The notes under the pieces are model-generated. The model was not told the DNA's origin, searched no databases, and was given only the letters and a program-made list of their open reading frames with translations. A stretch of DNA of 20,938 nt from a virus. The stretch spans positions 1-20,938 of the IMG/VR virus record IMGVR_UViG_3300008050_000408; one strand, given 5' to 3'. Both the position numbers and the translations under genes were made by a program. Shown piece by piece: positions 5,301 through 20,938 of the stretch (positions are counted from its first letter, which is position 1; every line of letters starts with the position of its first letter).

Positions 5301-5313
5301 TATTTCTCTTTGG

Positions 5314-6231: not shown

Positions 6232-6285
6232 GGGCTGACTATACGCCTCAGATAAAGATAAATCAACACGGTCTCGCTTGATTGC

Positions 6286-6323: not shown

Positions 6324-6341
6324 AAGTTAAGTTAGTTAGGA

Positions 6342-7694: not shown

Positions 7695-7897
7695 AGTTTC
7701 GTGTCTTTCTAGTTAAGGCTTTGCGGGATCTCCGTCCAAGCCAAAAGACCAGCCGCTGACAGGTTGCCAAGCTCTTAAAACTGGTCTCAGTTGTGGTGCA
7801 ACGTGCGACGTTGCCTACCAGAAGGGTTATGGCCCCAGCGATCCCAAAGTGAATTTTACCGCTGACCTTTGCTCCAGCGCACATCTTATTTATCAGG
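7695..7897 (-). promoter_or_regulatory. Structured leader of the capsid gene (hairpins, possible promoter)
   Basis: About 200 nt upstream of the capsid ATG hold no convincing gene. On either strand GCAACGT (7798-7804) pairs perfectly with ACGTTGC (7808-7814) around GCG. A second dyad, AGACCAG (7746-7752) with CTGGTCT (7781-7787), has a 28-nt loop. Both would fold in a capsid mRNA leader and could stabilise it or tune translation. A hydrophobic minus-strand frame from an ATG at 7884 exists but looks accidental. I could not pick a convincing -35/-10 pair. Confidence 0.45.
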
Positions 7898-8816: not shown

Positions 8817-8838
8817 AGTTCAAGGCCAAGCCCTGCTG

Positions 8839-8970
8839 TCAGCTTTTCTTTCGTGGTGACTTCCGCGTTGCCTTCTTAGAGGCCACCTTTTTAGGGGCTA
8901 CTTTCTTAGATGTTACCTTTTTGGGTGGTCGCCCTACTTTACTTCCGTATGTTCCTTTTCCTTGTGGCAT
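8839..8970 (-). CDS. 43-residue lysine-rich DNA-binding-like protein (H1-tail/AT-hook type)
   Basis: A short gene with ATG at 8968-8970 and TGA at 8839-8841. The protein starts MPQGKGTYGSKVGRPPKKV and continues as a run of KK-containing four- to five-residue repeats (VTSKKVAPKKVASKKAT), ending KSPRKKS. About one third of residues are Lys or Arg and there is almost no acid. GRPPKK resembles an AT-hook core, and the KKVAPKK repeats resemble histone H1 tails. It likely binds DNA or another acidic partner. The MPxGKGTYGxKxGRP start also recurs in small phage proteins of unknown role. It sits between the SSB-like gene terminator and the DUF115-like gene, with a candidate promoter just upstream. 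Leader GGGTTTATTT, no Shine-Dalgarno. The function is inferred from composition. Confidence 0.75.
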   Translation of the reverse strand: MPQGKGTYGSKVGRPPKKVTSKKVAPKKVASKKATRKSPRKKS

Positions 8971-8976
8971 AAATAA

Positions 8977-9005
8977 ACCCTATCGAGCGTAGCTCGCTAA
9001 GTCAA
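8977..9005 (-). promoter_or_regulatory. Candidate promoter with a dyad in its spacer
   Basis: On the minus strand TTGACT (9000-9005) is followed after 17 nt by TAGGGT (8977-8982). It keeps the three best-conserved -10 bases (T, A and final T). The spacer holds a perfect dyad, CGAGC-GTA-GCTCG (8984-8996), which could be an operator. It lies between the SSB-like gene terminator and the 43-residue lysine-rich gene. The -10 match is weak. Confidence 0.35.
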
Positions 9006-9051
9006 GATCGCCCTTTGGCCCCAAGTTTTTCCCTTCCCTTTTAATTGATTA

Positions 9052-9096
9052 CAAGAAAGCCCCGCTGAGAGGGTCGGATGAGAGTCTCAGCGGGGC
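9052..9096 (-). terminator. Terminator after the SSB-like gene
   Basis: The arms 9059-9070 and 9085-9096 pair perfectly over 12 bp, GC-rich outside, around a 14-nt loop. On the minus strand the stem is followed by TTTCTTGT, a modest T-tract. It begins 22 nt after the SSB-like stop. On the plus strand no T-run follows, so it should act leftward. Confidence 0.8.
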
Positions 9097-9118
9097 CTCA
9101 GTGCGTCCAGCAAGGGGC

Positions 9119-9835
9119 TTAAAACGGAATATCGTCACCCTCGTCCAGCTCGTCCTTTTCCTTGCGTGGCAGATTGTCGCCCTCGGGGATCGCTGTGCTT
9201 CGCTGCTCCTGAATCTGGTCCTGTTTCTGAGACCTCAAATAAGACTGGAACTCCTTATCGGCTTCCTTGGCTTTTTCAAGCTCCTCATCCGAGGGTTCAG
9301 AAGCTTTGAGGACCGGGATGTCATACTTGGTAGAGCCTTGCTGCCCCTCGTTTGTGGAGCCATCCCAAGTGACGAGCTTGCCCTCCAGTTGGCCTCCAGC
9401 AGATTTCTGGAGGTCAAACCACGCTCCGCTTCCGCTCCCTGAAAGGACAAGGCAAATGGTTCCAGTTTCTCCGTTGTGAAGTTTGCCGATTCCATAGACA
9501 CAGATGGCGAACTTTCCACCACAACCGCGAACCGTATCCTTGATGTCTTTCCACTTGCCCGAGACGACTGGGGTTCGGGACTTAAATCCATAGTAAACAT
9601 CAAGGTCTTCGTTCTGGACGTTCTTTACCTCGTTAGCGCGGATTCCTGTGTTTTTTGCGGTGCTGTATCCACGGACGGAATAAAGAGTGTCAAACGGGAT
9701 GAATTGAAACGACTTGTGCCGGATGTTCTCCTCTTTCTCTTTATCCCACGATTGAATGCGGCCTTCTCCGTGAGCGCCTTTCCACTCAAGAAATTGCTTT
9801 ACGGGGCTCGATGCTCTTTTTGTAGTTAATGACAT
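9119..9835 (-). CDS. Phage single-stranded DNA-binding protein (SSB-like)
   Basis: A 238-residue soluble protein. The N-terminal two thirds look like an OB-fold of the phage SSB type: VKQFLEWKGAHGEGRIQSWD at 12-31 with aromatic residues, later YYGFKSRTPVVSGKWKDIKD and GCGGKFAICVYGIGKLHNGE. A flexible charged linker with Glu, Lys and Gln follows (about 180-225). The protein ends DELDEGDDIPF, very close to the acidic DDDIPF tip by which bacterial SSBs recruit replication and repair enzymes. It should coat ssDNA and recruit host or phage partners through that tip. Its position between scaffold and capsid genes is unusual for a replication protein. It is preceded by an 85-nt leader with an 8-bp hairpin and followed by its own terminator. 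The SSB class is well supported, but the OB-fold is not provable by eye. Confidence 0.82.
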   Translation of the reverse strand: MSLTTKRASSPVKQFLEWKGAHGEGRIQSWDKEKEENIRHKSFQFIPFDTLYSVRGYSTAKNTGIRANEVKNVQNEDLDVYYGFKSRTPVVSGKWKDIKDTVRGCGGKFAICVYGIGKLHNGETGTICLVLSGSGSGAWFDLQKSAGGQLEGKLVTWDGSTNEGQQGSTKYDIPVLKASEPSDEELEKAKEADKEFQSYLRSQKQDQIQEQRSTAIPEGDNLPRKEKDELDEGDDIPF

Positions 9836-9884
9836 TGTATTGCTTTTGTTGTGTTTGTGTTGCCGTCTATCCGTGCTGTCTCTT

Positions 9885-9910
9885 CGGAGAGCCTTGTAAG
9901 CCGCTCTCCG
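9885..9910 (-). other. Perfect 8-bp hairpin between scaffold and SSB-like genes
   Basis: CGGAGAGC (9885-9892) pairs with GCTCTCCG (9903-9910) around a 10-nt loop, 10 nt after the scaffold stop. No T-run follows on the minus strand, so it is more likely an mRNA-stabilising or processing hairpin than a terminator. Confidence 0.5.
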
Positions 9911-9920
9911 CTAGATCTCT

Positions 9921-11222
9921 TTATGCTCCTACGCTGATTCCAAAGCTGGACGCAACATCTTCGTGGCTAGGTGCTTTACCTTTAGCGACTGCTGGAGCCG
10001 CCGTTCCTTGGCTCAGGTTTACCCCAGAGGCGGCTTGGTCTTTCTTGCCTTTGTCGAGCTTTCTTAACTGCGCCCTCAGTGCTGCATTTTCCTTCAGCAA
10101 GGTCGGAGCGTAAGCGGCAGACGCCATAGCGAAAGCTTTGTTCTCTGTTGAAACAGAGTCGAAGTCAGCGGAGTTGGCAAACGCTAGATCTCCTTTGAGT
10201 TGCTTTTTATTAGCCTCTGAAACAGGAACCTCTGCATACTTGTCCGTAATCTCTTTAACCTGAAGTCGGTATAGCTTTTGGGATTTAGTTTGGGCTTCCC
10301 TTTTGCTTTCTGCTTGCGCTAATTGATTGGCCTCGTGAGTTGACTTAGCATCCTCCAGCATTTCCTGCTGTGATTCGATGGCTTTATTGTAATCTGCCGC
10401 CATCAGAGATACTTTCTGCTCGATATGTCGCTTGTATTTCGAGTTTGACTCTCCTGTCTCTTCGTCCTCGTCAGGCATCAATGCGTCAATCTTGTCTGCA
10501 AGAATCCTCGGGTTAGTCTCTCCGATTGCTCGGGCGACGGACTTCTCATCTAGCCCGAAAGACTCAGCCAATGACTTCATTTCTTCCGCTATTTTGGCTA
10601 CAGGCAATTCGTAAGCATTCGCGTAAGCGTCGGATGATTTGACAGCCAGTTCGTAACTGTCCTCAGTTAGCTGCTTATTCAGCAACTCCAGTTCCTCTAA
10701 GCGATCCTGCTTCTCTTTCATCTCACTCAGTTGAGATTCTAGCTCTAGCTCTCTGGGCGAGGACGCCGGGGATTTCTTGGCCTCTTTGAGTTGTTGTTTG
10801 AGCGACTTCCATTTGGCTCGCTCTTTGTCCTCCATGCCTTCGACCTCGGCCTCGGTCTCTGCGTCAAACGCCTCTTCGTCAAACTTGTCGGGATCAGCTT
10901 TCTTTGCCGCTTTGTCGTCGCCTTTGTCGCTGCTTTTGTCGAATCCAAGGTCAGGAACATTGATGTCGTCGCCTTCTCCGCTGGTGTCTTCTCCGCTGGT
11001 GTCTTCTCCGCTGGTGTCTTCGTTAGTGTTGACGAGATTCTCTACCGCCGCGTCCTCTTTTGAGGCACTTGGGTCTTCGGCTTTTACCTCATCGACTGCG
11101 GGGGCGGCTGTCTGTGACTCATCGGCCTCTTTGCCTTGCGACTTAGCCCATGCTTCTTGAATGTCAAAATCCTTGGCCTGATCTCCCGATGGAGCTTCTG
11201 TCTTTTGTTTATTTTCGTCCAT
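9921..11222 (-). CDS. Scaffold-like head assembly protein
   Basis: A 433-residue, very acidic, mostly helical protein. Residues 1-120 are disordered and rich in Asp, Glu, Ser and Ala, with a triple GEDTS unit. Residues 130-200 form a coiled coil (RELELESQLSEMKEKQDRLE then ELELLNKQL). The middle is helical (YELPVAKIAEEMKSLAESFG). After about residue 290 it becomes Lys/Gln-rich, with a helix LLKENAALRAQLRKLDKGKK before a Gly/Ala C-terminus ending SSFGISVGA. Long acidic helices with a short basic segment near the C-terminus are typical of scaffolding proteins, which guide capsid assembly and then leave. The position between portal and capsid genes supports this. There is no enzymatic motif, and no protease domain that would make it a fused protease-scaffold. 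Confidence 0.8.
   Translation of the reverse strand: MDENKQKTEAPSGDQAKDFDIQEAWAKSQGKEADESQTAAPAVDEVKAEDPSASKEDAAVENLVNTNEDTSGEDTSGEDTSGEGDDINVPDLGFDKSSDKGDDKAAKKADPDKFDEEAFDAETEAEVEGMEDKERAKWKSLKQQLKEAKKSPASSPRELELESQLSEMKEKQDRLEELELLNKQLTEDSYELAVKSSDAYANAYELPVAKIAEEMKSLAESFGLDEKSVARAIGETNPRILADKIDALMPDEDEETGESNSKYKRHIEQKVSLMAADYNKAIESQQEMLEDAKSTHEANQLAQAESKREAQTKSQKLYRLQVKEITDKYAEVPVSEANKKQLKGDLAFANSADFDSVSTENKAFAMASAAYAPTLLKENAALRAQLRKLDKGKKDQAASGVNLSQGTAAPAVAKGKAPSHEDVASSFGISVGA
10974..11018. repeat. 15-bp tandem triplication in the scaffold-like gene
   Basis: The unit TTCTCCGCTGGTGTC occurs three times without change at 10974, 10989 and 11004. It encodes three successive acidic pentapeptides, GEDTS in register, in the disordered N-terminal part. 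The period preserves the frame. Exact identity suggests recent slippage. Confidence 0.95.
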
Positions 11223-11237
11223 GATATTGAGTTGTCG

Positions 11238-11507
11238 TTATTTTGGAATCTCGCTTACGTCGTTGATTAACCCTCTTGCCCTTGGTTTGGCTGGGACTCT
11301 GGTGATTTGTAACTTAGTCTGAATCATTGTGGCTAACCTCAAGAACCCTGACATGACGCTGGCCGTGTGAGCAAGCATATCGTTTGTGTGAACGCCGTCA
11401 AGTGTTTTGTTTATGTCCGCTACGGGGGCTTCCCGAAGGCACTCATCAATTAGCCGCTCAATCGCGGGCGCGACCGCCCTGAGAGCATCCTTGTCCTCTT
11501 TTGTCAT
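11238..11507 (-). CDS. Unknown 89-aa protein between portal and scaffold genes
   Basis: Not recognised. It is a helical, soluble protein (MTKEDKDALRAVAPAIERLI) with Ala- and Leu-rich helices in the first 65 residues. A basic, Pro-containing tail (VPAKPRARGLINDVSEIPK) ends it. There is no TM or Cys pair. It lies 8 nt downstream of the 68-residue gene and 15 nt upstream of the scaffold-like gene, so it is co-transcribed with head genes. Size and place would suit a small head-assembly or portal-associated factor, but nothing in the sequence proves that. Confidence 0.7.
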   Translation of the reverse strand: MTKEDKDALRAVAPAIERLIDECLREAPVADINKTLDGVHTNDMLAHTASVMSGFLRLATMIQTKLQITRVPAKPRARGLINDVSEIPK

Positions 11508-11515
11508 AACTTAAA

Positions 11516-11722
11516 TTACTTGCGGAGCTTGCTGATAATCTCTAGCGATTCCCCTTCTCCGTGTCCCATCCAAAGCACAGCACTTAGTGACTCCGCTTCT
11601 GACTTCGCTGACCTTACAGCACGAACGGTAGAGAGTGCAAGACTTATTTCTTCATCATCCATTGCCTCTACATCTGATCCTGTGACCTCCGCATAGAGGT
11701 CCAGCGTTTGCTTTGCTATCAT
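11516..11722 (-). CDS. Unknown 68-aa protein downstream of portal
   Basis: Not recognised. A small acidic helical protein (MIAKQTLDLYAEVTGSDVEA) with a central DDEEISLALSTVRAVRSAKS helix and a basic end (ISKLRK). No TM, signal or metal motif. It starts 20 nt after the portal stop and ends 8 nt before the 89-residue gene. Tight packing and intact frame support a real gene. Confidence 0.68.
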   Translation of the reverse strand: MIAKQTLDLYAEVTGSDVEAMDDEEISLALSTVRAVRSAKSEAESLSAVLWMGHGEGESLEIISKLRK

Positions 11723-11742
11723 GACTTGATTTGACCCCTTTG

Positions 11743-13998
11743 CTATTGCGGCTTAGGCTGGTGTCCGCGTATTTTACTCGCCGCGAGAGCGCCGTCAATA
11801 GCCATCTTTGCTTGGGACTCATTATTCTCGCGAATGATCTTTGCATCTGACTCAGCTTTCTTTAGCTGCTGGTCTAGCTGGAACTTCTCGACTTTCATTT
11901 GAGACTCAGTAGCCGCTTCGTTGCGCCTGCTTTCTTGCTCTTCTCCAGCGGCCCCCTGCTGTTGTTGTTGCTCTTCTGCGTCTCGCTGCTCTTTCTCGAT
12001 AGCTTTCATGCCGTTCATAAAGAATTCTCCGAGTCGCTGCACCTGAGCGGTAATCTCGTTGATGTTTTGCTCGGTCACATCGTTAGGAACGATCATCTCA
12101 AGGTGGTTTTGGCAGTGCTTGTAAATCGGCAGGTTCTTTAAGGTGTATTCAGTTAACTCTAGCTCGCCGCTCTCTACGAGATCCTTGGTCGCCATCATTA
12201 CCTCAAGGTGAACCTCAAGGTGAACCAAATGGTCTTCGCCGTCATTGGGTTCAATCTCAGCGCCGTCTAGCATTTGATTATTCTCTAGCTCCGCAATCTT
12301 ATCATCGTAGGTCTTCCTTGTCTGGTTCGGTGGCCCAATGTAAGAGTCAGCGGCCTGCTTCCCGGCCCTGTTCAGGATGTAGTCGTAATCATTGTTTTTG
12401 CGGCCCTGAGCATCCATTGACCCGTAAGTGTTGGATCGGATGTCTTTCAGCGCGTTCATCTGGTTGGCCTTGCTTCCTCCCCCAAGAACCCTGATCGCCT
12501 TCACCCCGCTCCACTGAATCGCGTTAAATATGTCTTCACTTAGCCCGTCCTCCTCAATCAAGAGTCGCTTCATCTCTATGGACTCAGGCGTGTCCTTTTC
12601 GTCCCTGAAGATCCTCGCTACCATTTCTGCGTAAATCCTGTCGAGAGGAGGGTAAAACAACGTAATTGATGCGGAGTTCATCGCGTTCATCTCCTCTAGC
12701 GTGGCGCTGATGTTGTCTGAGTTTGCCCTCTCCCCAAATGAGTCAACCTCCCCGATGTTGCCTGAGACCTTCCGCAAGGCACTGTCGATAATGCTCATCG
12801 CCGGAATCAGGCTTTGGCCAAGATCTCGCGTCTGCTGCTTTTCTGGCATCCTGACCCCCGGAGCGAGAATTGTTCCGAACGCTCCGAACTCGACCAAAGC
12901 CGTGTCTTGAAGTTGTTCTGTTCCGTCCACCTCATATTGAGGGAGAGAGTTAAGCTTCGCCGCGTTAAGCAGATCAGTGGTAGAAATGTTTTCTGCGTTA
13001 CAAAGCTGGTAAATGAAATGTCCCATGCCGCGAACGGTTGCCAAGCGGTTCCCTTTGCCTGACGAGTAAGGGAACACCTGAAACGCCTCGTTCATGCTTT
13101 TGTATTTGCTTATTTGCTTCTGAAGGAACTCGCCGTCCTTCTCGGGCGTAGTGAAGAAGCTGACCGATCCGTCTAGCTCCTCCAAGAAAATATAAATTAT
13201 AGGGATAGGCTTTATGGTGTGACTGACGTATGCCTCGTTAGCCAGAAGATCCTCCTCCAGCTTCTCCCAGTTCTTCCAGTCCCCTCCCTTTGATGTTGCT
13301 GCTGAGTGAATCGCTTTCCTCACTGCGACCGCATCCCACCCTTGTTTAGCTGCCTCGCCCTCGTTTCTGATCTTCCTCCACAGATCCCCAACGTGAAGCT
13401 CTCTCTTCATGGCAGCAATAGGAATCTGCGAACTGACTGGCTCGCAATTGACCGGGAACTTAATGTCACTGCGTCCCGCGCTTCCTACTTTCCATGAGTT
13501 TACGTCCTCGAAGAAAAGAACCCCAGCGCCGTCATCGACAAAGTTACAGCAAAGGTCGTTGAGACGGGTAGCGAAGCAATCCCAATCTCGTAGCATCTCC
13601 GAAAACCTAGTGGCTAAATGGCGCTCTGCCTCAGTCTTTTGAGGCCCCGGAATCTTCGTTGACAGCGGGATCGAGACAAGGTTTCTGTCGGACTCAAAGA
13701 TGTCCATGATCCCTGATGCCGCGTTGCTCGTAATTAGCTTCCCGTGTCCTGTGTTCAGGTTGTATAGTTCCCCTTGTCCTTCTTCCTCTCTCTTTGATTG
13801 GCTGTAAGGCGGAACATTGTTAAGTAACTCCTGAACTATTGACCTATTGTATGATCCTACTCGGTCATCATCAACCAGCCCCTTGTAGATCGCTCTGGCT
13901 GAGTCCGCGTTCAGAAGCCTAGATTCAGGAACCTCTCCTGTTTCAAGGTCAGGAACCGCAAGTATATCGAGGGCTGATTTACGAAAATTTTCTAACAT
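11743..13998 (-). CDS. Portal protein
   Basis: A 751-residue protein that should form the dodecameric ring at the unique capsid vertex, through which TerL drives DNA. The ATG (13996-13998) shares a base with the TerL stop (TAATG), the usual terminase-portal pairing. Features are a helical N-terminal segment, a beta-rich wing (IYIFLEELDGSVSFFTTPEK around residues 268-287), a probable stem-like helical region, and a helix-rich crown. The last 100 residues form a Gln/Glu coiled coil (EEQQQQQGAAGEEQESRRNE) ending in a basic tail. Mid-protein text such as GHFIYQLCNAENISTTDLLN and FYPPLDRIYAEMVARIFRDE is typical of podovirus-type portals. The length is at the upper end for the family, mainly because of the C-terminal extension. 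HLEVHLEV near residue 592 comes from a 12-bp duplication. The call relies on these patterns plus synteny. Confidence 0.85.
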   Translation of the reverse strand: MLENFRKSALDILAVPDLETGEVPESRLLNADSARAIYKGLVDDDRVGSYNRSIVQELLNNVPPYSQSKREEEGQGELYNLNTGHGKLITSNAASGIMDIFESDRNLVSIPLSTKIPGPQKTEAERHLATRFSEMLRDWDCFATRLNDLCCNFVDDGAGVLFFEDVNSWKVGSAGRSDIKFPVNCEPVSSQIPIAAMKRELHVGDLWRKIRNEGEAAKQGWDAVAVRKAIHSAATSKGGDWKNWEKLEEDLLANEAYVSHTIKPIPIIYIFLEELDGSVSFFTTPEKDGEFLQKQISKYKSMNEAFQVFPYSSGKGNRLATVRGMGHFIYQLCNAENISTTDLLNAAKLNSLPQYEVDGTEQLQDTALVEFGAFGTILAPGVRMPEKQQTRDLGQSLIPAMSIIDSALRKVSGNIGEVDSFGERANSDNISATLEEMNAMNSASITLFYPPLDRIYAEMVARIFRDEKDTPESIEMKRLLIEEDGLSEDIFNAIQWSGVKAIRVLGGGSKANQMNALKDIRSNTYGSMDAQGRKNNDYDYILNRAGKQAADSYIGPPNQTRKTYDDKIAELENNQMLDGAEIEPNDGEDHLVHLEVHLEVMMATKDLVESGELELTEYTLKNLPIYKHCQNHLEMIVPNDVTEQNINEITAQVQRLGEFFMNGMKAIEKEQRDAEEQQQQQGAAGEEQESRRNEAATESQMKVEKFQLDQQLKKAESDAKIIRENNESQAKMAIDGALAASKIRGHQPKPQ

Positions 13999-16091
13999 TA
14001 GAATTGAAGTTTTTTAGATGACCTACCAGCAGACATTCCAAATCTTTTGCGAGCCCCTCTGAACTCAGTCTGTGCGCGGCCTATGATAGCCTTTTGCTCT
14101 TGAGAATCAAGCAGTCTGTTTTGTATGGCCACATCCAACATTACCACAAATGCGTCCGCTAAGTCAGGGCTCTTCCCTGTTCTTGCTCGCATTCTTGGTT
14201 TCGGCTCAACCTTCAGCTTGTGTCCCGATTGTTTTTCATCGTATTCTCGCGCCACAAGCTCCTGTACTACTGAGGCGGGAATGCCTGAGACTTGTCCTGA
14301 TCGAATATACTGCTTGGGTTGGACCCACAGTTCTGACACCCGATTGCTAAACTCCAGCTTTGTGTCTCCGTTCAGGCTTACCGTCCGGCCTGACGGACTG
14401 CCTCCGAACTCGATCTTTTTGACTTTGGGGGACCACTCCATATCGACGATATGGCCAAAAGCAATCCCCGCTCCTGAGTTATCAAAGCCCGCACATTGCG
14501 GAGAAATGCCGCGATCTACGGACATGTTCCGCCAATTGATGACGATTTGGTGGCTAGGGGCCATCTCTCTTGTGTCGTCAATGGGAATCTCGTTGATACA
14601 TGCTACATGGAGCTTCTGCACTCCGTTTACCCTGCCACAGATTGCCTCGATGCTCGGGCTCCTGTCTCCTCCGCTGGTAAACGCGGAATCCAATCCGCAA
14701 ACTCTAGTTAGCTGGTCTGGGTTGTCCCACTTGGGCTCATCGGTTCCTGACGCGCTCATTAGCTCGGACTCAGAATAAATGGCGTTAGGCGACTTGTCAG
14801 AACACCACATAGCTCTATACATCCGATAATAATATCGGGAAGTCGCCGTGTATGTCTCTTTTGCCGCATCCATGACTGGCTGTGATGGCATCCAAAAGCA
14901 CTTAGGGGATTTTTTCGCTCTGTCCTTAGCGTCCCAGTTTTGCTCTTCTTTGATCCTTGGGGACTTCTCTGCATCAAGCCTGATGACCTTGCCTCGCTGA
15001 GTGAGCCATGAATCAGGTTCGTGCGCCACAGAGTTCCACCCGTCTTTTGGCTCACAGAACTTCCCAAACGGGTCAAGTTTCAGATTCGGGTTCCCGAGTG
15101 CTATCATTTGAAACTTCGGGTTGTTAATCAGGTTGGTATAAGCAACGGTCAGCAAGTTAGCGGAAAGGTCAGGAAGCTCGTCAGCAATCAATAAACAGAG
15201 CCCCCCTCCCGGCGCTAACGCCCCCGCAAGAACTCGCGCTACAACGTCCGGGTCAGTTGACAAAGCCGTGTTAGACGGAGCTTTTGCTCCCATTACTTTT
15301 GACGTAGCTTCCTCTCCTTTTTGTTTGTCAGCGGCCACAAGCCTGAGTCCTGACGCATCTGTGATCTCCCCTTGAGCGCCTAACCCTCGGATAACGCATT
15401 TGGAGTGAACTGATTTGCCGGGAGCGACCGTCCCTTTCTGCCCGAAGTAATGCTCTACTTGGGACCAGTATTCCTTAACCGCCTTCCAGATCCGACCTTT
15501 GGCCATCTCGATTGTGGTCGATGTCAGGAGGCATAGCGTCTCGGTCGGGGCGCTGAGATACATGATAATAGCATATAACCCGTAGCAGTCGCTTTTCCCT
15601 CCTGATGATGCTCCCGCCACCCCTAAGAATCTTTTTGGCTCCCGATTGGCTAGTGCCTCACGGACCATGAGTTCACCCCAGTCGTTCCAGATGTGGTGAC
15701 GGGTTGAGTCTTTGTTGTTGAAAATGATGTCAACCGCGTTTTTATAGTGCGAAAAAGAATCAAGCCTCCCGTCCTCCCAGTCGCCACGCGGGTCATGCCT
15801 CAAGCAGAATAGCTCAATATCAAGCGCACTTACGTTTGCTGGCCACTTCCGATTGTATTTCGTAATAGCGATCATTCGTTCTAACACCTGCCTAACAGCT
15901 TGTCCAGCCTCAGCCCGCCCAGCTATGTTGATCGCCACAGCGGATAAAAGCTCTTGACAGAATGGACTCACCCGTGAGAGGTTCGCCTTGGCGGGCCGAT
16001 AGCCCCGTGGCTCACTGGTTGATTTCGTGCTGAACAAGTCGGGACCAGTGATCCCTCTGTAGGTAGCCCCTACGGTAGAGGGACAATCCAA
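13998..16091 (-). CDS. terL: Terminase large subunit (ATPase-nuclease packaging motor)
   Basis: A 697-residue protein that cuts concatemeric DNA and pumps it into the prohead. ATPase domain: Walker A-type GASSGGKS at about 160-167, Walker B LCLLIADE (298-305) with catalytic Glu305, and coupling-type motif ALGNPN (331-336). Nuclease domain, RNase H-like: VCGLDSAF with Asp468, AGFDNSG with Asp537, and SPDLADAF with Asp643/Asp646. All three acidic positions are kept, so both activities should be intact. The start is TTG at 16089-16091, only two codons after an in-frame TGA. No ATG follows until residue 73, so TTG or a nearby alternative start must be used. No small terminase is recognised next to it. 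The stop overlaps the portal start by one base. Confidence 0.95.
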   Translation of the reverse strand: MDCPSTVGATYRGITGPDLFSTKSTSEPRGYRPAKANLSRVSPFCQELLSAVAINIAGRAEAGQAVRQVLERMIAITKYNRKWPANVSALDIELFCLRHDPRGDWEDGRLDSFSHYKNAVDIIFNNKDSTRHHIWNDWGELMVREALANREPKRFLGVAGASSGGKSDCYGLYAIIMYLSAPTETLCLLTSTTIEMAKGRIWKAVKEYWSQVEHYFGQKGTVAPGKSVHSKCVIRGLGAQGEITDASGLRLVAADKQKGEEATSKVMGAKAPSNTALSTDPDVVARVLAGALAPGGGLCLLIADELPDLSANLLTVAYTNLINNPKFQMIALGNPNLKLDPFGKFCEPKDGWNSVAHEPDSWLTQRGKVIRLDAEKSPRIKEEQNWDAKDRAKKSPKCFWMPSQPVMDAAKETYTATSRYYYRMYRAMWCSDKSPNAIYSESELMSASGTDEPKWDNPDQLTRVCGLDSAFTSGGDRSPSIEAICGRVNGVQKLHVACINEIPIDDTREMAPSHQIVINWRNMSVDRGISPQCAGFDNSGAGIAFGHIVDMEWSPKVKKIEFGGSPSGRTVSLNGDTKLEFSNRVSELWVQPKQYIRSGQVSGIPASVVQELVAREYDEKQSGHKLKVEPKPRMRARTGKSPDLADAFVVMLDVAIQNRLLDSQEQKAIIGRAQTEFRGARKRFGMSAGRSSKKLQF

Positions 16092-16325
16092 ATCTCAGCC
16101 AGTTAGCACTGGGGGGCGCGGATCAACTAGCTTGATGAGAGCTAGGATTGGATACTCAAAAGGTATTTACGGTTGATCTTGTTTCATGCGGACGACCGAG
16201 ACTCGGTTTCACTTGATTAGCTCTCCTTTCCTCCCTTGCGGGGGGAAGGGGGGCTGTTTCACGAACTTCTCTCGATCTGGTTTCACTTCGTTTCCTTTAC
16301 TTCAAAAGAGCATTGAGACAAAAGA
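16092..16325. promoter_or_regulatory. Divergent intergenic control region between late and rightward genes
   Basis: No protein gene fits here. Inverted repeats include CTAGC (16127-16131) with GCTAG (16141-16145), GATCAAC (16121-16127) with GTTGATC (16172-16178), and the perfect 11-bp palindrome CCGAG-A-CTCGG (16196-16206). Heptamers GTTTCAC/T recur at 16181, 16206, 16256 and 16280. A C-rich then G-rich stretch (16227-16252) can form an imperfect hairpin. The leftward late promoter and any operator should lie here, but I could not pick a convincing minus-strand -35/-10 pair. Confidence 0.55.
16181..16286 (+). repeat. Phased GTTTCAC heptamer repeats
   Basis: GTTTCAT occurs at 16181-16187, and GTTTCAC at 16206-16212, 16256-16262 and 16280-16286. 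The steps are 25, 50 and 24 bp, so all sit on one roughly 25-bp grid with one position empty. Two of the four extend to GGTTTCACTT. Iterons of an origin or operators of a late regulator are possible. Confidence 0.6.
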
Positions 16326-16378
16326 AAAATAACTCAGAAATGTCTTGCTGTTTGATGCTGTTGCTGCATAATCTTCAT
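16326..16378 (+). promoter_or_regulatory. Promoter-like 53-bp module, copy 1 (before the tRNA-like gene)
   Basis: An A-rich stretch is followed by TTGCTG (16345-16350), a 16-nt spacer and CATAAT (16367-16372). CATAAT matches the -10 consensus at 5 of 6, and the -35 is weak. The whole 53 bp recurs at 16869-16921 with one mismatch. Transcription would start near 16380, about 25 nt before the tRNA-like gene. Confidence 0.65.
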
Positions 16379-16404
16379 TGAAGCAAATCAAAAACAAAGA
16401 CTTT

Positions 16405-16501
16405 GAGACAGTGGTGTAACGGCAGCACAAACGCCCCAAGCGTTGTGTTAGCGACTAATCAGTATGGTAAAAAGGTGGAGGTTCGATTCCTTCCTGTCTC
16501 A
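16405..16501 (+). tRNA. tRNA-like gene; anticodon by position CCA (Trp) but arm atypical
   Basis: A 97-nt cloverleaf. The acceptor stem GAGACAG (16405-16411) pairs perfectly with CTGTCTC (16494-16500), and 16501 A is the discriminator with no encoded CCA. The D arm is GTGTAACGGCAGCAC, as in many Gln tRNAs. The T arm is GGAGG-TTCGATT-CCTTC with one G-T pair. The anticodon stem is irregular: 4 bp (AACG with CGTT at 16430-16433 and 16441-16444) around a 7-nt loop CCCCAAG, which places CCA at 34-36. Position 33 is then C instead of the near-universal U. The variable region is about 31 nt, longer than usual even for class II tRNAs, and includes a TTAG-CGA-CTAA hairpin. It is either a functional odd tRNA, an intron-bearing or degenerate tRNA, or a tRNA mimic. 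Identity uncertain. Confidence 0.75.
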
Positions 16502-16526
16502 TAATTATCATCAACTACCACAACCA

Positions 16527-16847
16527 ATGACACTAACCAATACACAGCTACTAGAGTTTGCAAAGACCCTAGACTCAGACGAAATCATCTACATCAACTG
16601 CCCCTACACATGACTAGCAGCCCGAGCAGCCACTCAGTTGAGCGGCAAGGAGCATTACATGGATGGTTGGGAAGTGTTTAATCCCCTGTTTTGGCAGTCA
16701 TCTGAAGACCTAGACGACCGCTTTACAGCGGTTACAGACGGTTACGCAAAGTGGAGTGAAGAGCATTGCAACTCTGAACTAGACGAACCTAGAGTCGAAG
16801 AAATCATCGGCGCGTTAGAGAACTTAATTGAGGGAGGAGAAAAATGA
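16527..16847 (+). pseudogene. Reading frame interrupted by an in-frame TGA (full-length form)
   Basis: The ATG at 16527, 25 nt after the tRNA-like gene, opens a frame that runs to the TGA at 16845-16847 and is broken only by one TGA at 16611-16613. The upstream 28 residues (MTLTNTQLLEFAKTLDSDEI then IYINCPYT) and the downstream residues (LAARAATQLSGKEHYMDGWE) read as one continuous protein of about 106 residues. CPYT-W-LAARAA would be natural if TGA stood for Trp. The context TGACTAG is known as leaky in some viruses, though not as a rule in bacteria. Options are a nonsense mutation, a sequence error, read-through, or two separate peptides. TGA ends other genes here (for example at 8839 and 2389), so a general code change is excluded. 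Confidence 0.6.
16638..16847 (+). CDS. Unknown 69-aa protein (C-terminal part of the interrupted frame)
   Basis: Conservative call: an open frame from TTG 16638 (or ATG 16659, MDGWEVFNPLFWQSS) to the TGA at 16845-16847. The product is acidic, with an aromatic-rich segment and a Glu-rich C-terminal helix (EEIIGALENLIEGGEK). I do not recognise it. No Shine-Dalgarno precedes TTG, which weakens the case for an independent start and favours the longer frame from 16527. The second 53-bp promoter module follows it. Confidence 0.5.
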   Translation: MSGKEHYMDGWEVFNPLFWQSSEDLDDRFTAVTDGYAKWSEEHCNSELDEPRVEEIIGALENLIEGGEK

Positions 16848-16868
16848 AACCCTCTTTTTGAATTGCGG

Positions 16869-16921
16869 AAAATAATTCAGAAATGTCTTGCTGTTTGATG
16901 CTGTTGCTGCATAATCTTCAT
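16869..16921 (+). promoter_or_regulatory. Promoter-like 53-bp module, copy 2 (before the small-gene cluster)
   Basis: Same as the module at 16326-16378 with one substitution (C to T at 16876). TTGCTG is at 16888-16893 and CATAAT at 16910-16915 with a 16-nt spacer. Transcription would start near 16923. The -10 segment is partly repeated again (GCATAATCT at 16945-16953). Conservation of both putative boxes, with sequence diverging outside, supports a promoter role. Confidence 0.65.
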
Positions 16922-16957
16922 CTGAGAGGCAACAACCACTCTAAGCATAATCTATCT

Positions 16958-16974
16958 GACGGCTGGTAGCCGTC
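16958..16974 (+). other. Perfect 7-bp hairpin in the leader
   Basis: GACGGCT (16958-16964) and AGCCGTC (16968-16974) pair around GGT, followed by TCTTACCG. It lies about 35 nt after the second promoter. It is too weak in T to be a clear terminator, and may be a leader structure. Confidence 0.45.
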
Positions 16975-16985
16975 TCTTACCGTCC

Positions 16986-17033
16986 CCTTGGTGGAGCGTA
17001 AATCCTAAGAAACATTCCACAAGGACATTTACG
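16986..17033 (+). promoter_or_regulatory. Mutually exclusive hairpins in the leader of the 88-aa gene
   Basis: CCTTG(G)TGGA (16986-16995) can pair with TCCACAAGG (17016-17024) over 9 bp with one bulged G. CGTAAAT (16997-17003) can pair with ATTTACG (17027-17033) over 7 bp, extended by CCT with AGG (17004-17006 with 17022-17024) across a 2-nt bulge. The two pairings share 17022-17024 and interleave, so the RNA should switch between them. The ATG at 17060 lies 26 nt downstream. Confidence 0.5.
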
Positions 17034-17059
17034 GAGCCTTGGCGTTCCACAAAAAAATC

Positions 17060-17326
17060 ATGCAAAAAGCAAAATTACAACCAACTCACCCTCTTCCCGA
17101 TGTCGTCCAGACCGCATTTGTCTTTGCGGCCCGATACGTCCACCACCGAGACACGGGCGGCACATTGGCTGTTTGCCGCGCCTTGGCCTCTGTCTGGCCC
17201 GAACTGTCAGAGAATACCCGTGAGCAAATCCTCAGGGAGAGCTATGAGGCGACAACCAATCTCCATGAGTGGAGAGAGTTTCGCGGAGATGACGAAGAGA
17301 ACGCCAACTGTGATGCCGCCCCGTAG
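17060..17326 (+). CDS. Unknown 88-aa protein, first gene of the small-gene cluster
   Basis: I chose ATG 17060 (MQKAKLQPTHPLPDVVQTAF); a TTG at 17039 would add 7 residues but lies next to the leader hairpins. The protein is helical. AFVFAARYVHHRDTGGTLAV is followed by a helix-turn with WPELSENTREQILRESYEAT and an acidic end (GDDEENANCDAAP). No TM, metal motif or known domain is recognised. The leader is A-rich (CCACAAAAAAATC) without a Shine-Dalgarno. It follows the second promoter module and the switch-like hairpins, so its translation may be regulated. It is probably an early or accessory gene. Confidence 0.65.
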   Translation: MQKAKLQPTHPLPDVVQTAFVFAARYVHHRDTGGTLAVCRALASVWPELSENTREQILRESYEATTNLHEWREFRGDDEENANCDAAP

Positions 17327-17344
17327 GGGTCGGGCATCCGCGAC

Positions 17345-17358
17345 TTGTTCTCCATTTT
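17345..17358 (+). repeat. Leader motif TTGTTCTCCATTTT, copy 1
   Basis: This 14-nt motif lies 14 nt before the ATG at 17373. It recurs exactly at 17787-17800, 4 nt before the ATG at 17805, with GCGACT just upstream in both. A shorter relative, ATCCATTTTT, precedes the ATG at 18737. It may be a translation-initiation or promoter element of this gene set. Confidence 0.6.
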
Positions 17359-17372
17359 AATTGATTACTACA

Positions 17373-17786
17373 ATGAACAACAACCAAGAACTAAACGAGA
17401 AACTAGCCGCCCTCTGTGGGTGGAAATCACCTGACCACCCCGACTGCAAGGCGGCAACGGAAGGATGGGCTACGGGAGACAAGTGGTGGATCGACCCCGA
17501 AGGAATGCAGCGCATGTGCCACGATATTCCCAAATACTGCGATGACCTCAACGCCACGCGAAAGGCAGAGGCATTGCTAGACTATGATGGGCAAGTCGCA
17601 TTCATTACTGCGCTCTGTCCATTAGTGGGTCTGACGGGTGAAGGCAAATACTGGTATGACTTGGAGTGCCATGAGGCTTGGAGGGTGGCAAACGCCACGG
17701 CGAGGCAACGCGTGGAGGCTCTTCTTGTTGCTTTGGAGAACGGTCCATGTCCTGCCACCGAGCATGGCGAGGTTGGTAGCGACTGA
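17373..17786 (+). CDS. Phage ABA-sandwich-domain-like protein
   Basis: ATG 17373 (MNNNQELNEKLAALCGWKSP) gives 137 residues. The pattern resembles the phage ABA sandwich domain: an N-terminal Leu/Ala helix, a Trp/Pro-rich strand region (GWATGDKWWIDPEGMQ), then IPKYCDDLNATRKAEALLDY at 49-68. The C-terminal helix HEAWRVANATARQRVEALLV (100-119) ends near an Asn-Gly-Pro turn. Proteins with this domain occur in many phages and prophages, often among small early genes, and their role is unknown. It lies 46 nt after the 88-residue gene and 18 nt before the next. The AT-rich leader carries the repeated TTGTTCTCCATTTT motif and no Shine-Dalgarno. The domain call is by pattern. Confidence 0.78.
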   Translation: MNNNQELNEKLAALCGWKSPDHPDCKAATEGWATGDKWWIDPEGMQRMCHDIPKYCDDLNATRKAEALLDYDGQVAFITALCPLVGLTGEGKYWYDLECHEAWRVANATARQRVEALLVALENGPCPATEHGEVGSD

Positions 17787-17800
17787 TTGTTCTCCATTTT
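17787..17800 (+). repeat. Leader motif TTGTTCTCCATTTT, copy 2
   Basis: Exact copy of the motif at 17345-17358, here overlapping the end of the ABA-sandwich-like gene region and ending 4 nt before ATG 17805. A 3-nt difference separates it from the shared upstream GCGACT. Confidence 0.6.
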
Positions 17801-17804
17801 TGAT

Positions 17805-18032
17805 ATGAGACTCACGATACGACACCGAATCAGGATTGCATGGGAGGCATTGACCAGTCGAAGCGGTCACGCCCACCCTTCGCAAGAGAAGCAGCTTTCG
17901 ACATTTCAAAGAGGATACGATGCGGGGATGAAGGATGCCGAGCTTTCAAGAAAACAACTCAGGGAAGACGCAGACCTTGCAGACATGGGGCGTCCACTCA
18001 AATTCCAATACCATGAAAACGCACAAAGGTAA
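17805..18032 (+). CDS. Unknown 75-aa basic protein
   Basis: ATG 17805 (MRLTIRHRIRIAWEALTSRS). The first 25 residues are basic and amphipathic. The middle helix FQRGYDAGMKDAELSRKQLR has the spaced Gly/Ala pattern seen in many small phage proteins. Its C-terminus is polar. I recognise no family. Its last 20 nt overlap the next gene, which suggests coupled translation. The start directly follows the second TTGTTCTCCATTTT copy. Confidence 0.62.
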   Translation: MRLTIRHRIRIAWEALTSRSGHAHPSQEKQLSTFQRGYDAGMKDAELSRKQLREDADLADMGRPLKFQYHENAQR

Positions 18033-18384
18033 AACCTACTACTACGCCAAAGAGCCGAAGCGGTGGACTTGCATTGAAGCGACTGATGGCGAGAACGGTC
18101 AATCAACATTCGTCAGCGAGGATGGCGAAGAGGCGAAGTTCTATAATCACGACATGCACCTAACGTGCGAGAAACGCATCGCTTCAACGCTTATCGCTCT
18201 CCTTCCTCATGGAACCTACAACATCGGGATCTCGCTGGAACACACCCTATACGGGGACTCCAACGACTCTGCCGACTGGTGGAGAGTGGCTGTGCCGCTG
18301 CCGAGGCCAAGGGGAAACTGGAAAGCGATACACGAAGCCCGAACGGATGAAGGGGTGGCTCTCACGCTGGCTGACCAGTATTAA
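18013..18384 (+). CDS. Unknown 123-aa protein
   Basis: I chose ATG 18013 (MKTHKGKTYYYAKEPKRWTC), since the open frame upstream overlaps the preceding gene for longer. The protein reads as a small beta-rich domain: YYYAKEPKRWTCIEATDGEN, STFVSEDGEEAKFYNHDMHL, a helix IASTLIALLPHGTYNIGISL, and a Trp-rich core (DWWRVAVPLPRPRGNW), ending in GVALTLADQY. It has two Cys residues, no TM and no recognised catalytic motif. It overlaps the upstream gene by 20 nt and precedes the next by 9 nt, so it is in the same operon. Confidence 0.65.
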   Translation: MKTHKGKTYYYAKEPKRWTCIEATDGENGQSTFVSEDGEEAKFYNHDMHLTCEKRIASTLIALLPHGTYNIGISLEHTLYGDSNDSADWWRVAVPLPRPRGNWKAIHEARTDEGVALTLADQY

Positions 18385-18393
18385 GCAGAACTC

Positions 18394-18618
18394 ATGAATA
18401 CGAAAAACCAATTTGAAGCACAAAGAAAAGCCTTGGAGTTCCAAGAAATGTATTACCCAAGCGATTGCTTGCTTAAGCAACGCGCTCAAAGCGAGGCCAT
18501 AAGGTTCGCGTTCGCGCAGGGCTTTGAGATGGCGCAGAGATTAATGCAGGAACGCTTAGACGAAATGAAGGAAGACTTAGACTTCGCCAACGGAAAGGGC
18601 TGCAATTTTACTGGATAA
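18394..18618 (+). CDS. Unknown 74-aa helical protein
   Basis: ATG 18394 (MNTKNQFEAQRKALEFQEMY) gives 74 residues. It is mainly helical, with FAFAQGFEMAQRLMQERLDE and an acidic Lys/Glu stretch, ending GKGCNFTG. It resembles other short phage helical proteins in style but I recognise no family. It sits 9 nt after the previous stop, without a Shine-Dalgarno. Confidence 0.6.
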   Translation: MNTKNQFEAQRKALEFQEMYYPSDCLLKQRAQSEAIRFAFAQGFEMAQRLMQERLDEMKEDLDFANGKGCNFTG

Positions 18619-18629
18619 CGCACAAGATC

Positions 18630-18740
18630 ATGGATAGATGCCCACCAGAAACTATTGAAAGCACGGATAGCGCCACCGGGCAGCTATTCCATGCATCGCC
18701 TTGTTCTGCTCCGTTAGTTATCCATTTTTATATTTTATGA
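18630..18740 (+). CDS. Possible 36-aa microprotein coupled to the next gene
   Basis: A short frame from ATG 18630 (MDRCPPETIESTDSATGQLF) ends with TGA at 18738-18740. That stop overlaps the next ATG (18737) in an ATGA, the classic arrangement for coupled translation. The product is polar, then hydrophobic at the end (LVIHFYIL). It may be a real small protein or a leader peptide. The length is too short for coding statistics, so support is the overlap and the lack of another gene in this 118-nt gap. Confidence 0.4.
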   Translation: MDRCPPETIESTDSATGQLFHASPCSAPLVIHFYIL

Positions 18741-18970
18741 GCCTAGAAAACGACAACTACAACCTAGCCAACATGCTAACCAAAGCAGAGAATGAGCTAG
18801 AATCACTTAGGGTGGTATCTCAACAGATGGCGATGGTCTTGGGGTCATGTATTTATGACCGCGACCCATGGGCGCACGTTGACTCAAAAAGAACGGAGGC
18901 AGCAAACAACGCTTGGCGCGATCACCTGCACAAATTCCCCTTGGATAACGGAAAGGTGAATCATGACTGA
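18737..18970 (+). CDS. Unknown 77-aa protein
   Basis: ATG 18737 (MSLENDNYNLANMLTKAENE) is preceded by an AT-rich leader (ATCCATTTTTATATTTT). A Glu/Leu helix with coiled-coil character (TKAENELESLRVVSQQMAMV) is followed by a short Cys- and Asp-containing segment and a Trp-containing polar end. No domain is recognised. Its end overlaps the next gene by 8 nt, so the two are in one operon. Confidence 0.62.
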   Translation: MSLENDNYNLANMLTKAENELESLRVVSQQMAMVLGSCIYDRDPWAHVDSKRTEAANNAWRDHLHKFPLDNGKVNHD

Positions 18971-19151
18971 AACGACGAAGGAGTGTAAGGAATTGAATCA
19001 ACCGCCTTGTTATGTGGTGGTCGAGGAAGATAGGGGAATGGGTGCTACCGTGGAGGCCGTCTTTTTGGATAAGGAGCAGGCGGAAGCTTTGGCAAACACT
19101 AGCTCTCATCTGTATGTTGAAGAGTCTGTGCTTTGTTCACATAACGCATGA
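18963..19151 (+). CDS. Unknown 62-aa protein
   Basis: ATG 18963 (MTETTKECKELNQPPCYVVV) overlaps the end of the previous gene by 8 nt. The sequence reads as strand-helix: PPCYVVVEEDRGMGATVEAV, FLDKEQAEALANTSSHLYVE, SVL. The FLDKEQAEALA portion is reminiscent of small phage proteins with a beta-alpha-beta fold. It contains three Cys. I do not recognise it. Its stop overlaps the following start in ATGA. Confidence 0.6.
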   Translation: MTETTKECKELNQPPCYVVVEEDRGMGATVEAVFLDKEQAEALANTSSHLYVEESVLCSHNA

Positions 19152-19351
19152 GTGATGCCACCACAACGAGCGAAGCGAGGCAGGGGTTGGAATCCACGCC
19201 TTGTTCGCTGACCGCATTTATCTCCTGCGCTTTCATTTTGGCGGGAATCTCCGCCGTGATCATGATTGTCGGGCTTGCCGTATGGCTACCCGTCGAGATC
19301 GAAAAAGACGGCGAAACCATCAAAGAACGAAACGACCTTTTTCACAAATAG
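19148..19351 (+). CDS. Small one-TM membrane protein
   Basis: ATG 19148, overlapping the previous stop as ATGA, gives 67 residues. A polar N-terminus (MSDATTTSEARQGLESTPCS) leads into one long hydrophobic stretch (LTAFISCAFILAGISAVIMI then VGLAVWLPV, about 21-50). A charged tail (EIEKDGETIKERNDLFHK) ends it. It is probably an inner-membrane protein, perhaps altering the host membrane early in infection, which is inference. No signal-peptidase site is evident. Confidence 0.62.
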   Translation: MSDATTTSEARQGLESTPCSLTAFISCAFILAGISAVIMIVGLAVWLPVEIEKDGETIKERNDLFHK

Positions 19352-19361
19352 ACCCCTCGAT

Positions 19362-19389
19362 ATGTTCCCGAAATACGTTTCGGCAACAT
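19362..19389 (+). other. Strong inverted repeat between two rightward genes
   Basis: ATGTT-C-CCGAAA (19362-19373) pairs with TTTCGG-C-AACAT (19378-19389) around TACG. This gives 11 bp with one C-C mismatch. It sits in the 63-nt gap between the membrane-protein gene and the gene at 19415. The following TTGTAAG is a poor T-run, so it could be a weak terminator, a stabilising 3' hairpin or an operator. Confidence 0.6.
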
Positions 19390-19414
19390 TTGTAAGTCAC
19401 TGAAAACCAACAAT

Positions 19415-19699
19415 ATGAAAAAGAAATTAAACGCTAGTGGCGTTTCGATGCCTGCCCGTGTTCGCCCCCCCGTTGAAATTATGGGGCAGCTTCGGAAAAT
19501 GGAGGGCGAATTACACCACAGCGATCTGACCATGAGCAATCAAGATAGGATGGCTGGTGAGAGGATGGCGCATGAAATTGGCGACCTCTACATCGACCGC
19601 TTCAACGAGACACCTGTGGCCCAATGGTCAAAGGTTATGAGGGCATTACGCGCCCACGGATTCGAGATTTCTTTGCAGAACACCAACCACACAACATAA
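19415..19699 (+). CDS. Unknown 94-aa protein
   Basis: ATG 19415 (MKKKLNASGVSMPARVRPPV) follows an A-rich leader (GAAAACCAACAAT) without a Shine-Dalgarno. The N-terminus is basic and Pro-containing. It is followed by a Met/Glu helix (IMGQLRKMEGELHHSDLTMS), a second helix (QDRMAGERMAHEIGDLYIDR) and a C-terminal QWSKVMRALRAHGFEISLQN. No known domain. It ends 4 nt before the methyltransferase ATG, so it may be co-expressed with it. Confidence 0.62.
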   Translation: MKKKLNASGVSMPARVRPPVEIMGQLRKMEGELHHSDLTMSNQDRMAGERMAHEIGDLYIDRFNETPVAQWSKVMRALRAHGFEISLQNTNHTT

Positions 19700-19703
19700 A
19701 AAC

Positions 19704-20938
19704 ATGCAATTACTAAACGGAGACTGCCTAGAGCAGATGAAAGCATTACCAGATAACAGCGTGGACAGCATTGTAACTGACCCACCCTACGGGATTAGCT
19801 TCATGGCTAAGAAGTGGGATTATGACGTTCCCAAGGTCGAGGTCTGGCAAGAAGCCATGCGAGTGCTGAAGCCCGGAGGCCATGCTTTGATCGCTTGCGG
19901 CACTCGGACGCAACACCGAATGGTGGTGAACATCGAGGACGCTGGCTTTGAGATACGTGATGTGGTGAGTTGGATTTATGGGAGCGGATTCCCGAAGAGC
20001 CTGAATATCAGTAAGGCGATTGATAAGTCTGCTGGGGCAGAGCGTGAGGTCGTGGGCGTAAGTTCAAACAGTCGAGATAGGAGTAAGCACGTTGTCCATG
20101 CAATGAATGAAATACCTAACAAACCGATCAACATTACAGCCCCCGCAACCGAATCCGCCAAGCAATGGGACGGCTGGGGAACAGCCCTAAAACCAGCCTG
20201 TGAGTTCTTCACGCTTGCCCGTAAGCCTCTCTCGGAAAAGACGGTGGCCGCTAATGTCCTCAAGTGGGGAACAGGCGGGATTAACATTGATGGGTGTCGG
20301 GTGGGTACAGAGGTGCTTACTAATCAGGAGGGCATGTCCCGTTGGAATAACTATAGGCACGGAGACAATAAGTATCCATGTGACGTTCCAGCTACCGAGG
20401 TCACAGGTCGCTTCCCCGCCAACCTTATCCACTCAGGCGAGCAGGAGGTGATGGACTTGTTTCCGGAGACGAAGCCAAGTAAGAGGGCTGCGCGTGGTGG
20501 CACTAACGCAAACCCGATGGACTGGGGAAATGCACGGAGCGATGGCGACATTCCAAAGGGTCACAACGACAACGGAGGCTCAGCAGCCCGCTTCTTCTAC
20601 TGCGCCAAGGCAAGCAAGAAGGATCGCGACGAGGGGCTTGAGGGTTTTGAGGAGAAGCAGACAACTTTTTCGGAAGGGACAAGACTATCAAAAAACGGCG
20701 ATGGAACACCAAGGAATCAGAAGCCGAGTAATCGTAACAATCACCCAACAGTCAAACCCACAGCCCTTATGCAATACCTATGTCGCCTCATCACCCCTAC
20801 GGGTGGCGTTGTCCTAGACCCTTATATGGGTAGCGGCAGCACGGGGAAGGCAGCAGTAAAAGAGGGCTTCGATTTTGTGGGAATTGAGCTTAACCCTGAT
20901 TATTTCAATATCGCAAAGTCACGCATCGCATCAAGCAA
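19704..20938 (+). CDS. DNA methyltransferase, beta-order N4/N6 amino-methyltransferase, cut by window edge
   Basis: ATG 19704 (MQLLNGDCLEQMKALPDNSV) opens a frame of 411 codons that reaches the right edge with no stop. The catalytic motif TDPPYG (residues 25-30) comes first, then LKPGGHALIACGT. A long target-recognition region follows with WGTGGINIDGCRV. Near the end lie HPTVKP and the AdoMet-binding motif VVLDPYMGSGSTGKAAVKEG with FVGIELNPDYF. Motif IV before motif I is the beta order. DPPY fits methylation of adenine N6 or cytosine N4. It probably marks phage or host DNA, for example against restriction. No restriction partner is visible here. The short A-rich leader (CATAAAAAC) has no Shine-Dalgarno. 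Only a few residues are likely to be missing at the C-terminus. Confidence 0.92.
   Translation, partial: MQLLNGDCLEQMKALPDNSVDSIVTDPPYGISFMAKKWDYDVPKVEVWQEAMRVLKPGGHALIACGTRTQHRMVVNIEDAGFEIRDVVSWIYGSGFPKSLNISKAIDKSAGAEREVVGVSSNSRDRSKHVVHAMNEIPNKPINITAPATESAKQWDGWGTALKPACEFFTLARKPLSEKTVAANVLKWGTGGINIDGCRVGTEVLTNQEGMSRWNNYRHGDNKYPCDVPATEVTGRFPANLIHSGEQEVMDLFPETKPSKRAARGGTNANPMDWGNARSDGDIPKGHNDNGGSAARFFYCAKASKKDRDEGLEGFEEKQTTFSEGTRLSKNGDGTPRNQKPSNRNNHPTVKPTALMQYLCRLITPTGGVVLDPYMGSGSTGKAAVKEGFDFVGIELNPDYFNIAKSRIASS

What the first reader, a model, noticed from the sequence alone, without database searches (positions are those of the whole stretch)
16527..16847. In-frame TGA at a likely Trp position right after the tRNA-like gene
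One frame runs from ATG 16527 to TGA 16847, broken only by TGA at 16611-16613. The context reads CPYT-TGA-CTAG, and CTAG after TGA is a known leaky context in some viruses. A tRNA-like gene whose anticodon by position is CCA (Trp) lies 110 nt upstream. Classic UGA suppression in E. coli (the Hirsh tRNA-Trp) keeps a CCA anticodon and changes the D arm. A link between the odd tRNA and this TGA is therefore testable, though speculative.
Basis: partly seen in the sequence, partly recalled or inferred. Interest (0 to 1): 0.7.

Follow-up and report, generated by a model that had tools for sequence, protein, structure and literature searches.

The report
Small phage gene interrupted by TGA
A small gene of unknown relatives in an uncultured phage is split by a genuine TGA codon; the simplest reading is an ordinary stop in a broken or two-part gene, and a rescue of that stop by the odd tRNA-like gene next door is possible but has little support.

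Summary
The frame exists as described: ATG 16527, TGA 16611-16613, final TGA 16845-16847. A sister contig with its own sequence differences carries the same TGA, so a private assembly error is unlikely. A single stop inside a long frame is not unusual here (13 such frames in the window, 1-11 in shuffles). However, both sides of this TGA score as coding, and ATG 16527 has the most open, G-free, SD-less start region of the starts measured. One gene interrupted by TGA is therefore somewhat likelier than two. No homologue was found in GenBank phages, plasmids, IMG/VR or GTDB, so residue 29 cannot be tested. TGA ends 5 of 22 other genes and this frame itself, so UGA is not reassigned. The upstream tRNA-like element passes Rfam but not ARAGORN. 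It has a roughly 29-nt variable-region insert, A73 and no U33, and folds best as a non-cloverleaf. Read as CCA, it would have a 4-bp anticodon stem with an A27.G43 mismatch, the configuration recently shown to promote UGA readthrough in E. coli. That match is striking, but TrpRS identity elements are missing. Best explanation: an ordinary stop in a lineage-specific accessory gene broken by nonsense mutation; tandem ORFs and leaky readthrough are rivals.

The parts
16326..16378 (+). 53-nt direct repeat, copy 1, upstream of the tRNA-like element; CATAAT inside is -10-like
   Evidence: 98% identical to copy 2; found nowhere else in the 24.8 kb known of this phage; promoter role is inference
16405..16501 (+). 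tRNA-like element: 7-bp acceptor GAGACAG/CTGTCTC, Gln-type D arm, intact T arm, A73, no encoded CCA, about 29-nt insert in the variable region
   Evidence: Rfam RF00005 42.1 bits; not called by default ARAGORN; MFE -29.1 against -22.4 kcal/mol for the cloverleaf
16429..16445 (+). Anticodon-arm region AAACG-CCCCAAG-CGTTG: in the CCA register a 4-bp stem with A27.G43 mismatch, C33 and G38; more stable alternative is the 5-bp stem AACGC/GCGTT with loop CCCAA
   Evidence: direct reading; folds
16527..16610 (+). First part of the frame, 28 codons from ATG, G-free unstructured leader
   Evidence: codon score in the coding range (26th percentile of genes, top 5% of non-coding windows); start region the most open of those measured
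16611..16613 (+). In-frame TGA followed by CTAG
   Evidence: identical in sister contig L001
16614..16847 (+). Continuation of the frame, 77 codons plus terminal TGA; contains three TGG codons
   Evidence: positive codon score in this frame only
16647..16661 (+). AAGGAG followed 6 nt later by ATG 16659: possible restart site
   Evidence: only candidate start checked with AAGGAG, but in the most structured start region
16869..16921 (+). 53-nt direct repeat, copy 2, downstream of the frame and upstream of the next gene's leader

Best explanation
The frame 16527-16847 is one small, lineage-specific accessory gene of a tailed phage, probably transcribed with the tRNA-like element just upstream. 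It carries a genuine nonsense codon at position 29. Ribosomes start at ATG 16527 and mostly release a 28-residue peptide at the TGA; the remaining 77 codons are then a relic or at best made at trace level. Shown: the TGA, its presence in two assemblies, coding-like codon use on both sides, a start region typical of this phage, and continued use of UGA as a terminator. Inferred: that the two halves were one protein and that the TGA arose by mutation in a dispensable gene.
For: Coding score is positive on both sides of the TGA in the same frame and negative or near zero in the other frames. The leader before ATG 16527 has no G in 20 nt and no SD, as for most of the phage's other genes, and is the least structured start measured (-1.7 kcal/mol). 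The alternative start ATG 16659 lies in the most structured start region (-22.1 kcal/mol). TGA terminates 5 of 22 other genes and this frame; 96 TGG and no TGA occur inside genes. The same TGA is in L001. Weak and post hoc: a DUF4406-like pattern YIxxP...GWEVFNP spans the TGA (4.5 bits; 31 of 2000 shuffles of the N part score as high).
Against: No homologue shows an intact version. Four of the five coding-stop-coding frames in this phage are simply adjacent genes. The codon signal of 28 codons is modest. The AlphaFold model is poor (pLDDT 49). Nothing shows that the TGA is not read through.
Confidence: 0.42

Rival explanations
1. Two ORFs: a 28-codon leader or small gene ends at the TGA, and a separate gene starts at ATG 16659 (62 codons), reached by ribosomes that terminate at the TGA and restart at the AAGGAG site.
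For: AAGGAG 6 nt before ATG 16659; four other coding-stop-coding frames in this phage are tandem genes with 9-63 nt to the next ATG.
Against: Only 1 of the other 20 starts checked has even a 4-nt SD match; the ATG 16659 region is the most structured start; AAG GAG is also plain Lys-Glu; a 28-codon gene would be far shorter than the other genes considered.
Confidence: 0.26
2. Leaky or programmed UGA readthrough by host near-cognate tRNA makes a minor 106-residue form, without help from the tRNA-like gene.
For: UGA followed by C and CUAG; UGA_CUAG is a known readthrough signal in mammals (PMC9841425) and UGA is a leaky stop in E. coli (own knowledge); frame coding on both sides.
Against: CUAG effect not shown in bacteria; no conserved relatives; no special 3' structure (60 nt from the TGA on fold no better than shuffles, z +0.76; the 47 nt after it z -1.65).
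Confidence: 0.16
3. The tRNA-like gene is a suppressor: a CCA-anticodon tRNA with a 4-bp anticodon stem that reads UGA as Trp in the gene 25 nt downstream.
For: In the CCA register the stem is AACG/CGTT with an A27.G43 mismatch; C27A giving A27.G43 in E. coli tRNA-Trp raised UGA readthrough about 2.5-fold (PMC13092985). The loop CCCCAAG differs at two positions from the E. coli Trp loop CUCCAAA (own knowledge). The tRNA-like element directly precedes the gene.
Against: A73, G1-C72 and C5-G68 miss the bacterial Trp identity (G73, A1-U72, G5-C68, PMC12135181); C33; about 29-nt insert; best fold is not a cloverleaf; own terminal stop is TGA; no other coding-like frame is interrupted by TGA except adjacent genes.
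Confidence: 0.05
4. The upstream 28 codons are non-coding and the open frame across them is chance.
For: Such frames are common in shuffled sequence; the signal is from 28 codons only.
Against: Codon score in the top 5% of non-coding windows; start region typical of the phage and the most open.
Confidence: 0.09
5. UGA encodes selenocysteine.
For: A small hairpin with AGUU loop lies 22 nt after the TGA, within loose bacterial SECIS spacing (own knowledge).
Against: Weak stem with an A.C mismatch; no redox family match; no selenoprotein homologue.
Confidence: 0.01

Closest known systems
4-bp anticodon-stem tRNA-Trp(CCA) UGA readers (Blastocrithidia, Condylostoma, Zinderia; PMC13092985)
   Same: CCA register, unpaired A27.G43, 4-bp anticodon stem, adjacent in-frame UGA
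   Different: C33 and G38, A73, non-Trp acceptor pairs, about 29-nt insert, UGA still a terminator, only one candidate gene
Hirsh UGA suppressor tRNA-Trp (G24A)
   Same: U11-A24 in the D stem and CCA in one register
   Different: D arm resembles tRNA-Gln of a related phage; U11-A24 is common in tRNAs (own knowledge); identity elements missing
Phages with TGA-to-Trp code (table 4) and Sup-TCA tRNA (PMC11210395)
   Same: phage with a tRNA-like gene and an in-frame TGA
   Different: no TCA anticodon, TGA used as stop in 5 of 22 genes, no TGA inside the long genes
DUF4406 / nucleoside deoxyribosyltransferase-like phage proteins
   Same: YIxxP then G-W-E-V-F-N-P at similar spacing, spanning the TGA
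   Different: score not significant (4.5 bits), C-terminal LPGWExSxGAxxE motif absent, Pfam gives no match

Membership tests
Functional elongator tRNA | Match to tRNA covariance model | tested here: met
   RF00005 42.1 bits, cutoff 29
Functional elongator tRNA | Standard anticodon arm with U33 and 7-nt loop, normal or class II variable arm | tested here: not met
   C33 in either register, 5-nt loop in the best stem, about 29-nt insert without class II geometry; ARAGORN default none
Functional elongator tRNA | Cloverleaf favoured in folding | tested here: not met
   MFE -29.1 non-cloverleaf, cloverleaf -22.4 kcal/mol; unmodified RNA energies only, and several tRNAs of related phages also miss the exact cloverleaf
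Bacterial tRNA-Trp | G73, A1-U72, G5-C68 and CCA anticodon | tested here: not met
   A73, G1-C72, C5-G68; identity set; CCA only in one register
4-bp anticodon-stem UGA reader | Unpaired 27-43 with CCA anticodon | tested here: inconclusive
   A27.G43 in the CCA register, but that register leaves no nucleotide 26 and competes with a 5-bp stem
Phage with UGA reassigned to Trp | TGA absent as terminator, present within genes | tested here: not met
   TGA ends 5 of 22 genes; 0 TGA and 96 TGG inside genes
Programmed readthrough gene | Stop and extension conserved among relatives | tested here: inconclusive
   no relatives except the same phage
DUF4406 | Pfam PF14359 match | tested here: not met
   no match at E 10; custom profile 4.5 bits

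The most novel reading that the evidence does not exclude
A self-contained phage cassette, flanked by 53-nt direct repeats, in which a degenerate 4-bp-anticodon-stem CCA tRNA raises UGA readthrough of the gene immediately downstream, so that the tRNA and the stop together set the level of the full-length protein.
Probability: 0.05. Interest if true: 0.85.

Novelty: new member of a known kind. Interest (0 to 1): 0.3.

Why it matters
If the TGA is an ordinary stop, the locus is a small phage gene in decay or a pair of small ORFs. If the neighbouring tRNA-like element does read UGA, it would be a local, gene-specific stop suppressor in a phage that otherwise keeps UGA as a stop, and a natural case of the 4-bp anticodon-stem mechanism outside reassigned genomes.

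Tried and rejected
Homologue searches for the whole frame and its parts: tblastn in phages and plasmids, IMG/VR peptide patterns, GTDB, ten phage records (nine terminase relatives and L014), and motif patterns. All gave only the same phage. Pfam, NCBIfam, PHROGs and PDB sequence searches: nothing significant. AlphaFold on the TGA=W protein: too poor to use, so no fold search was run. tRNA-like relatives: pattern hits only the sister contig and one chance hit in L014 inside unrelated sequence; the exact 3' part is absent from GTDB contigs. ARAGORN's intron mode offers a His(GTG) reading with a 7-nt intron and a 3-bp stem; rejected as forced. GC content of the 45 nt after the TGA does not separate coding from intergenic. 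Global UGA reassignment rejected on terminator use. My first codon table used a wrong frame for the terminase-like gene and was redone.

Full report
What is there. The window is a 20.9 kb virus record. On the minus strand it has a 697-aa ORF that I take for the large terminase subunit, followed by large structural-type genes; on the plus strand, small genes and a DNA methyltransferase. The naming of the terminase and structural genes rests on position and size, since PHROGs and Pfam give no significant match. Close relatives are absent: the best IMG/VR matches to the 697-aa protein, other than the sister contig, are 39% identical. The sister contig L001 covers window 6004-20938 at 99.9% and extends about 3.9 kb further.

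The observation. The frame ATG 16527 to TGA 16847 with one internal TGA at 16611-16613 is confirmed. L001 has the same TGA. It differs from the window elsewhere by two substitutions and a 15-nt indel, so it is a separate assembly, though probably of the same population. It therefore argues against a private error but carries almost no evolutionary information. As a bare pattern, a frame broken once is common: 13 in the window, 1-11 in 20 shuffles.

Is it one gene? Using codon usage of 22 genes of the phage, the 28 codons before the TGA score 0.089 bits per codon, at the 26th percentile of real in-frame windows and above 95% of non-coding ones; the part after scores 0.159. In 24.8 kb, five of 26 once-interrupted frames are coding-like on both sides. 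Four of these are adjacent genes in the same frame, with 9-63 nt between the stop and the next ATG. The fifth is this one, with 45 nt. So the two-gene reading has precedent here. The start sites argue the other way. Most genes in this phage lack Shine-Dalgarno sites, and the leader of ATG 16527 is G-free and the least structured of all starts measured, -1.7 kcal/mol, whereas ATG 16659 has AAGGAG at 6 nt but lies in the most structured start region, -22.1 kcal/mol. SD-less starts tuned by low structure and adenines are described for Bacteroidetes (PMC6847099); the host here is unknown. A DUF4406-like pattern across the TGA (YIxxP, then GWEVFNP) is a weak and post hoc hint for one domain.

Is the TGA read as Trp? 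UGA is not reassigned: it ends five of 22 genes and this frame itself, and 96 TGG but no TGA occur within genes. The following CTAG is a readthrough signal in mammals (PMC9841425); I found no evidence that it acts in bacteria.

The tRNA-like element. Acceptor stem, D arm and T arm are intact and the Rfam score is above the cut-off. The D arm matches tRNA-Gln of a phage with a related terminase, in register (16 of 18). The anticodon region is abnormal. The strongest stem is AACGC/GCGTT with a 5-nt loop CCCAA. In a register with a 7-nt loop, the loop is CCCCAAG with CCA at 34-36, the stem has four pairs and A27.G43 is unpaired. This last feature is the one that makes E. coli tRNA-Trp(CCA) read UGA better (PMC13092985, about 2.5-fold). 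Against function as a Trp suppressor stand C33, the roughly 29-nt insert, the non-cloverleaf minimum-energy fold (a soft criterion, since some tRNAs of related phages also miss the exact cloverleaf) and the missing Trp identity elements: A73, G1-C72, C5-G68 (G73A cost about 9-fold in B. subtilis). It may be a decayed tRNA gene.

Verdict. The most economical account is a genuine stop in a dispensable small gene (0.42), then two ORFs with restart (0.26), leaky readthrough (0.16), chance (0.09), and tRNA-linked suppression (0.05). The distinction between a broken gene and two ORFs rests on modest signals and could turn with one homologue.

Noticed in passing
16326-16378 and 16869-16921: 53-nt direct repeat, 98% identical, flanks the tRNA-like element plus frame; could be a duplicated promoter or the edges of a cassette.
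   Followed up: partly
19341-19417; L001 3182-3259: 78-nt repeat (91%) at gene junctions of different small genes; 17033-17056 also recurs about 4 kb further on in L001. The phage seems to reuse leader sequences.
   Followed up: partly
11007-11021: 15-nt in-frame indel between window and L001 inside an EDTSG repeat of ORF 9921-11222; length variation of a coding repeat.
   Followed up: no
5970-6093: Tandem repeat of about 42 nt coding for PTPTEKPWATDPPP, at the point where the match to L001 ends.
   Followed up: no
L010 6016-8775: The match to the 697-aa terminase-like protein spans 2760 nt for 573 residues, leaving about 1 kb of extra sequence inside, with six tRNA genes just upstream (5275-5799); possible intron, intein or insertion.
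   Followed up: no
L016 848-944: ARAGORN calls tRNA-Pro(TGG), but the loop CTTGGAA and long variable arm fit tRNA-Ser(GGA).
   Followed up: partly
16429-16445: CCA-register anticodon stem with A27.G43 mismatch matches the 4-bp-stem UGA-reading tRNA-Trp design.
   Followed up: partly
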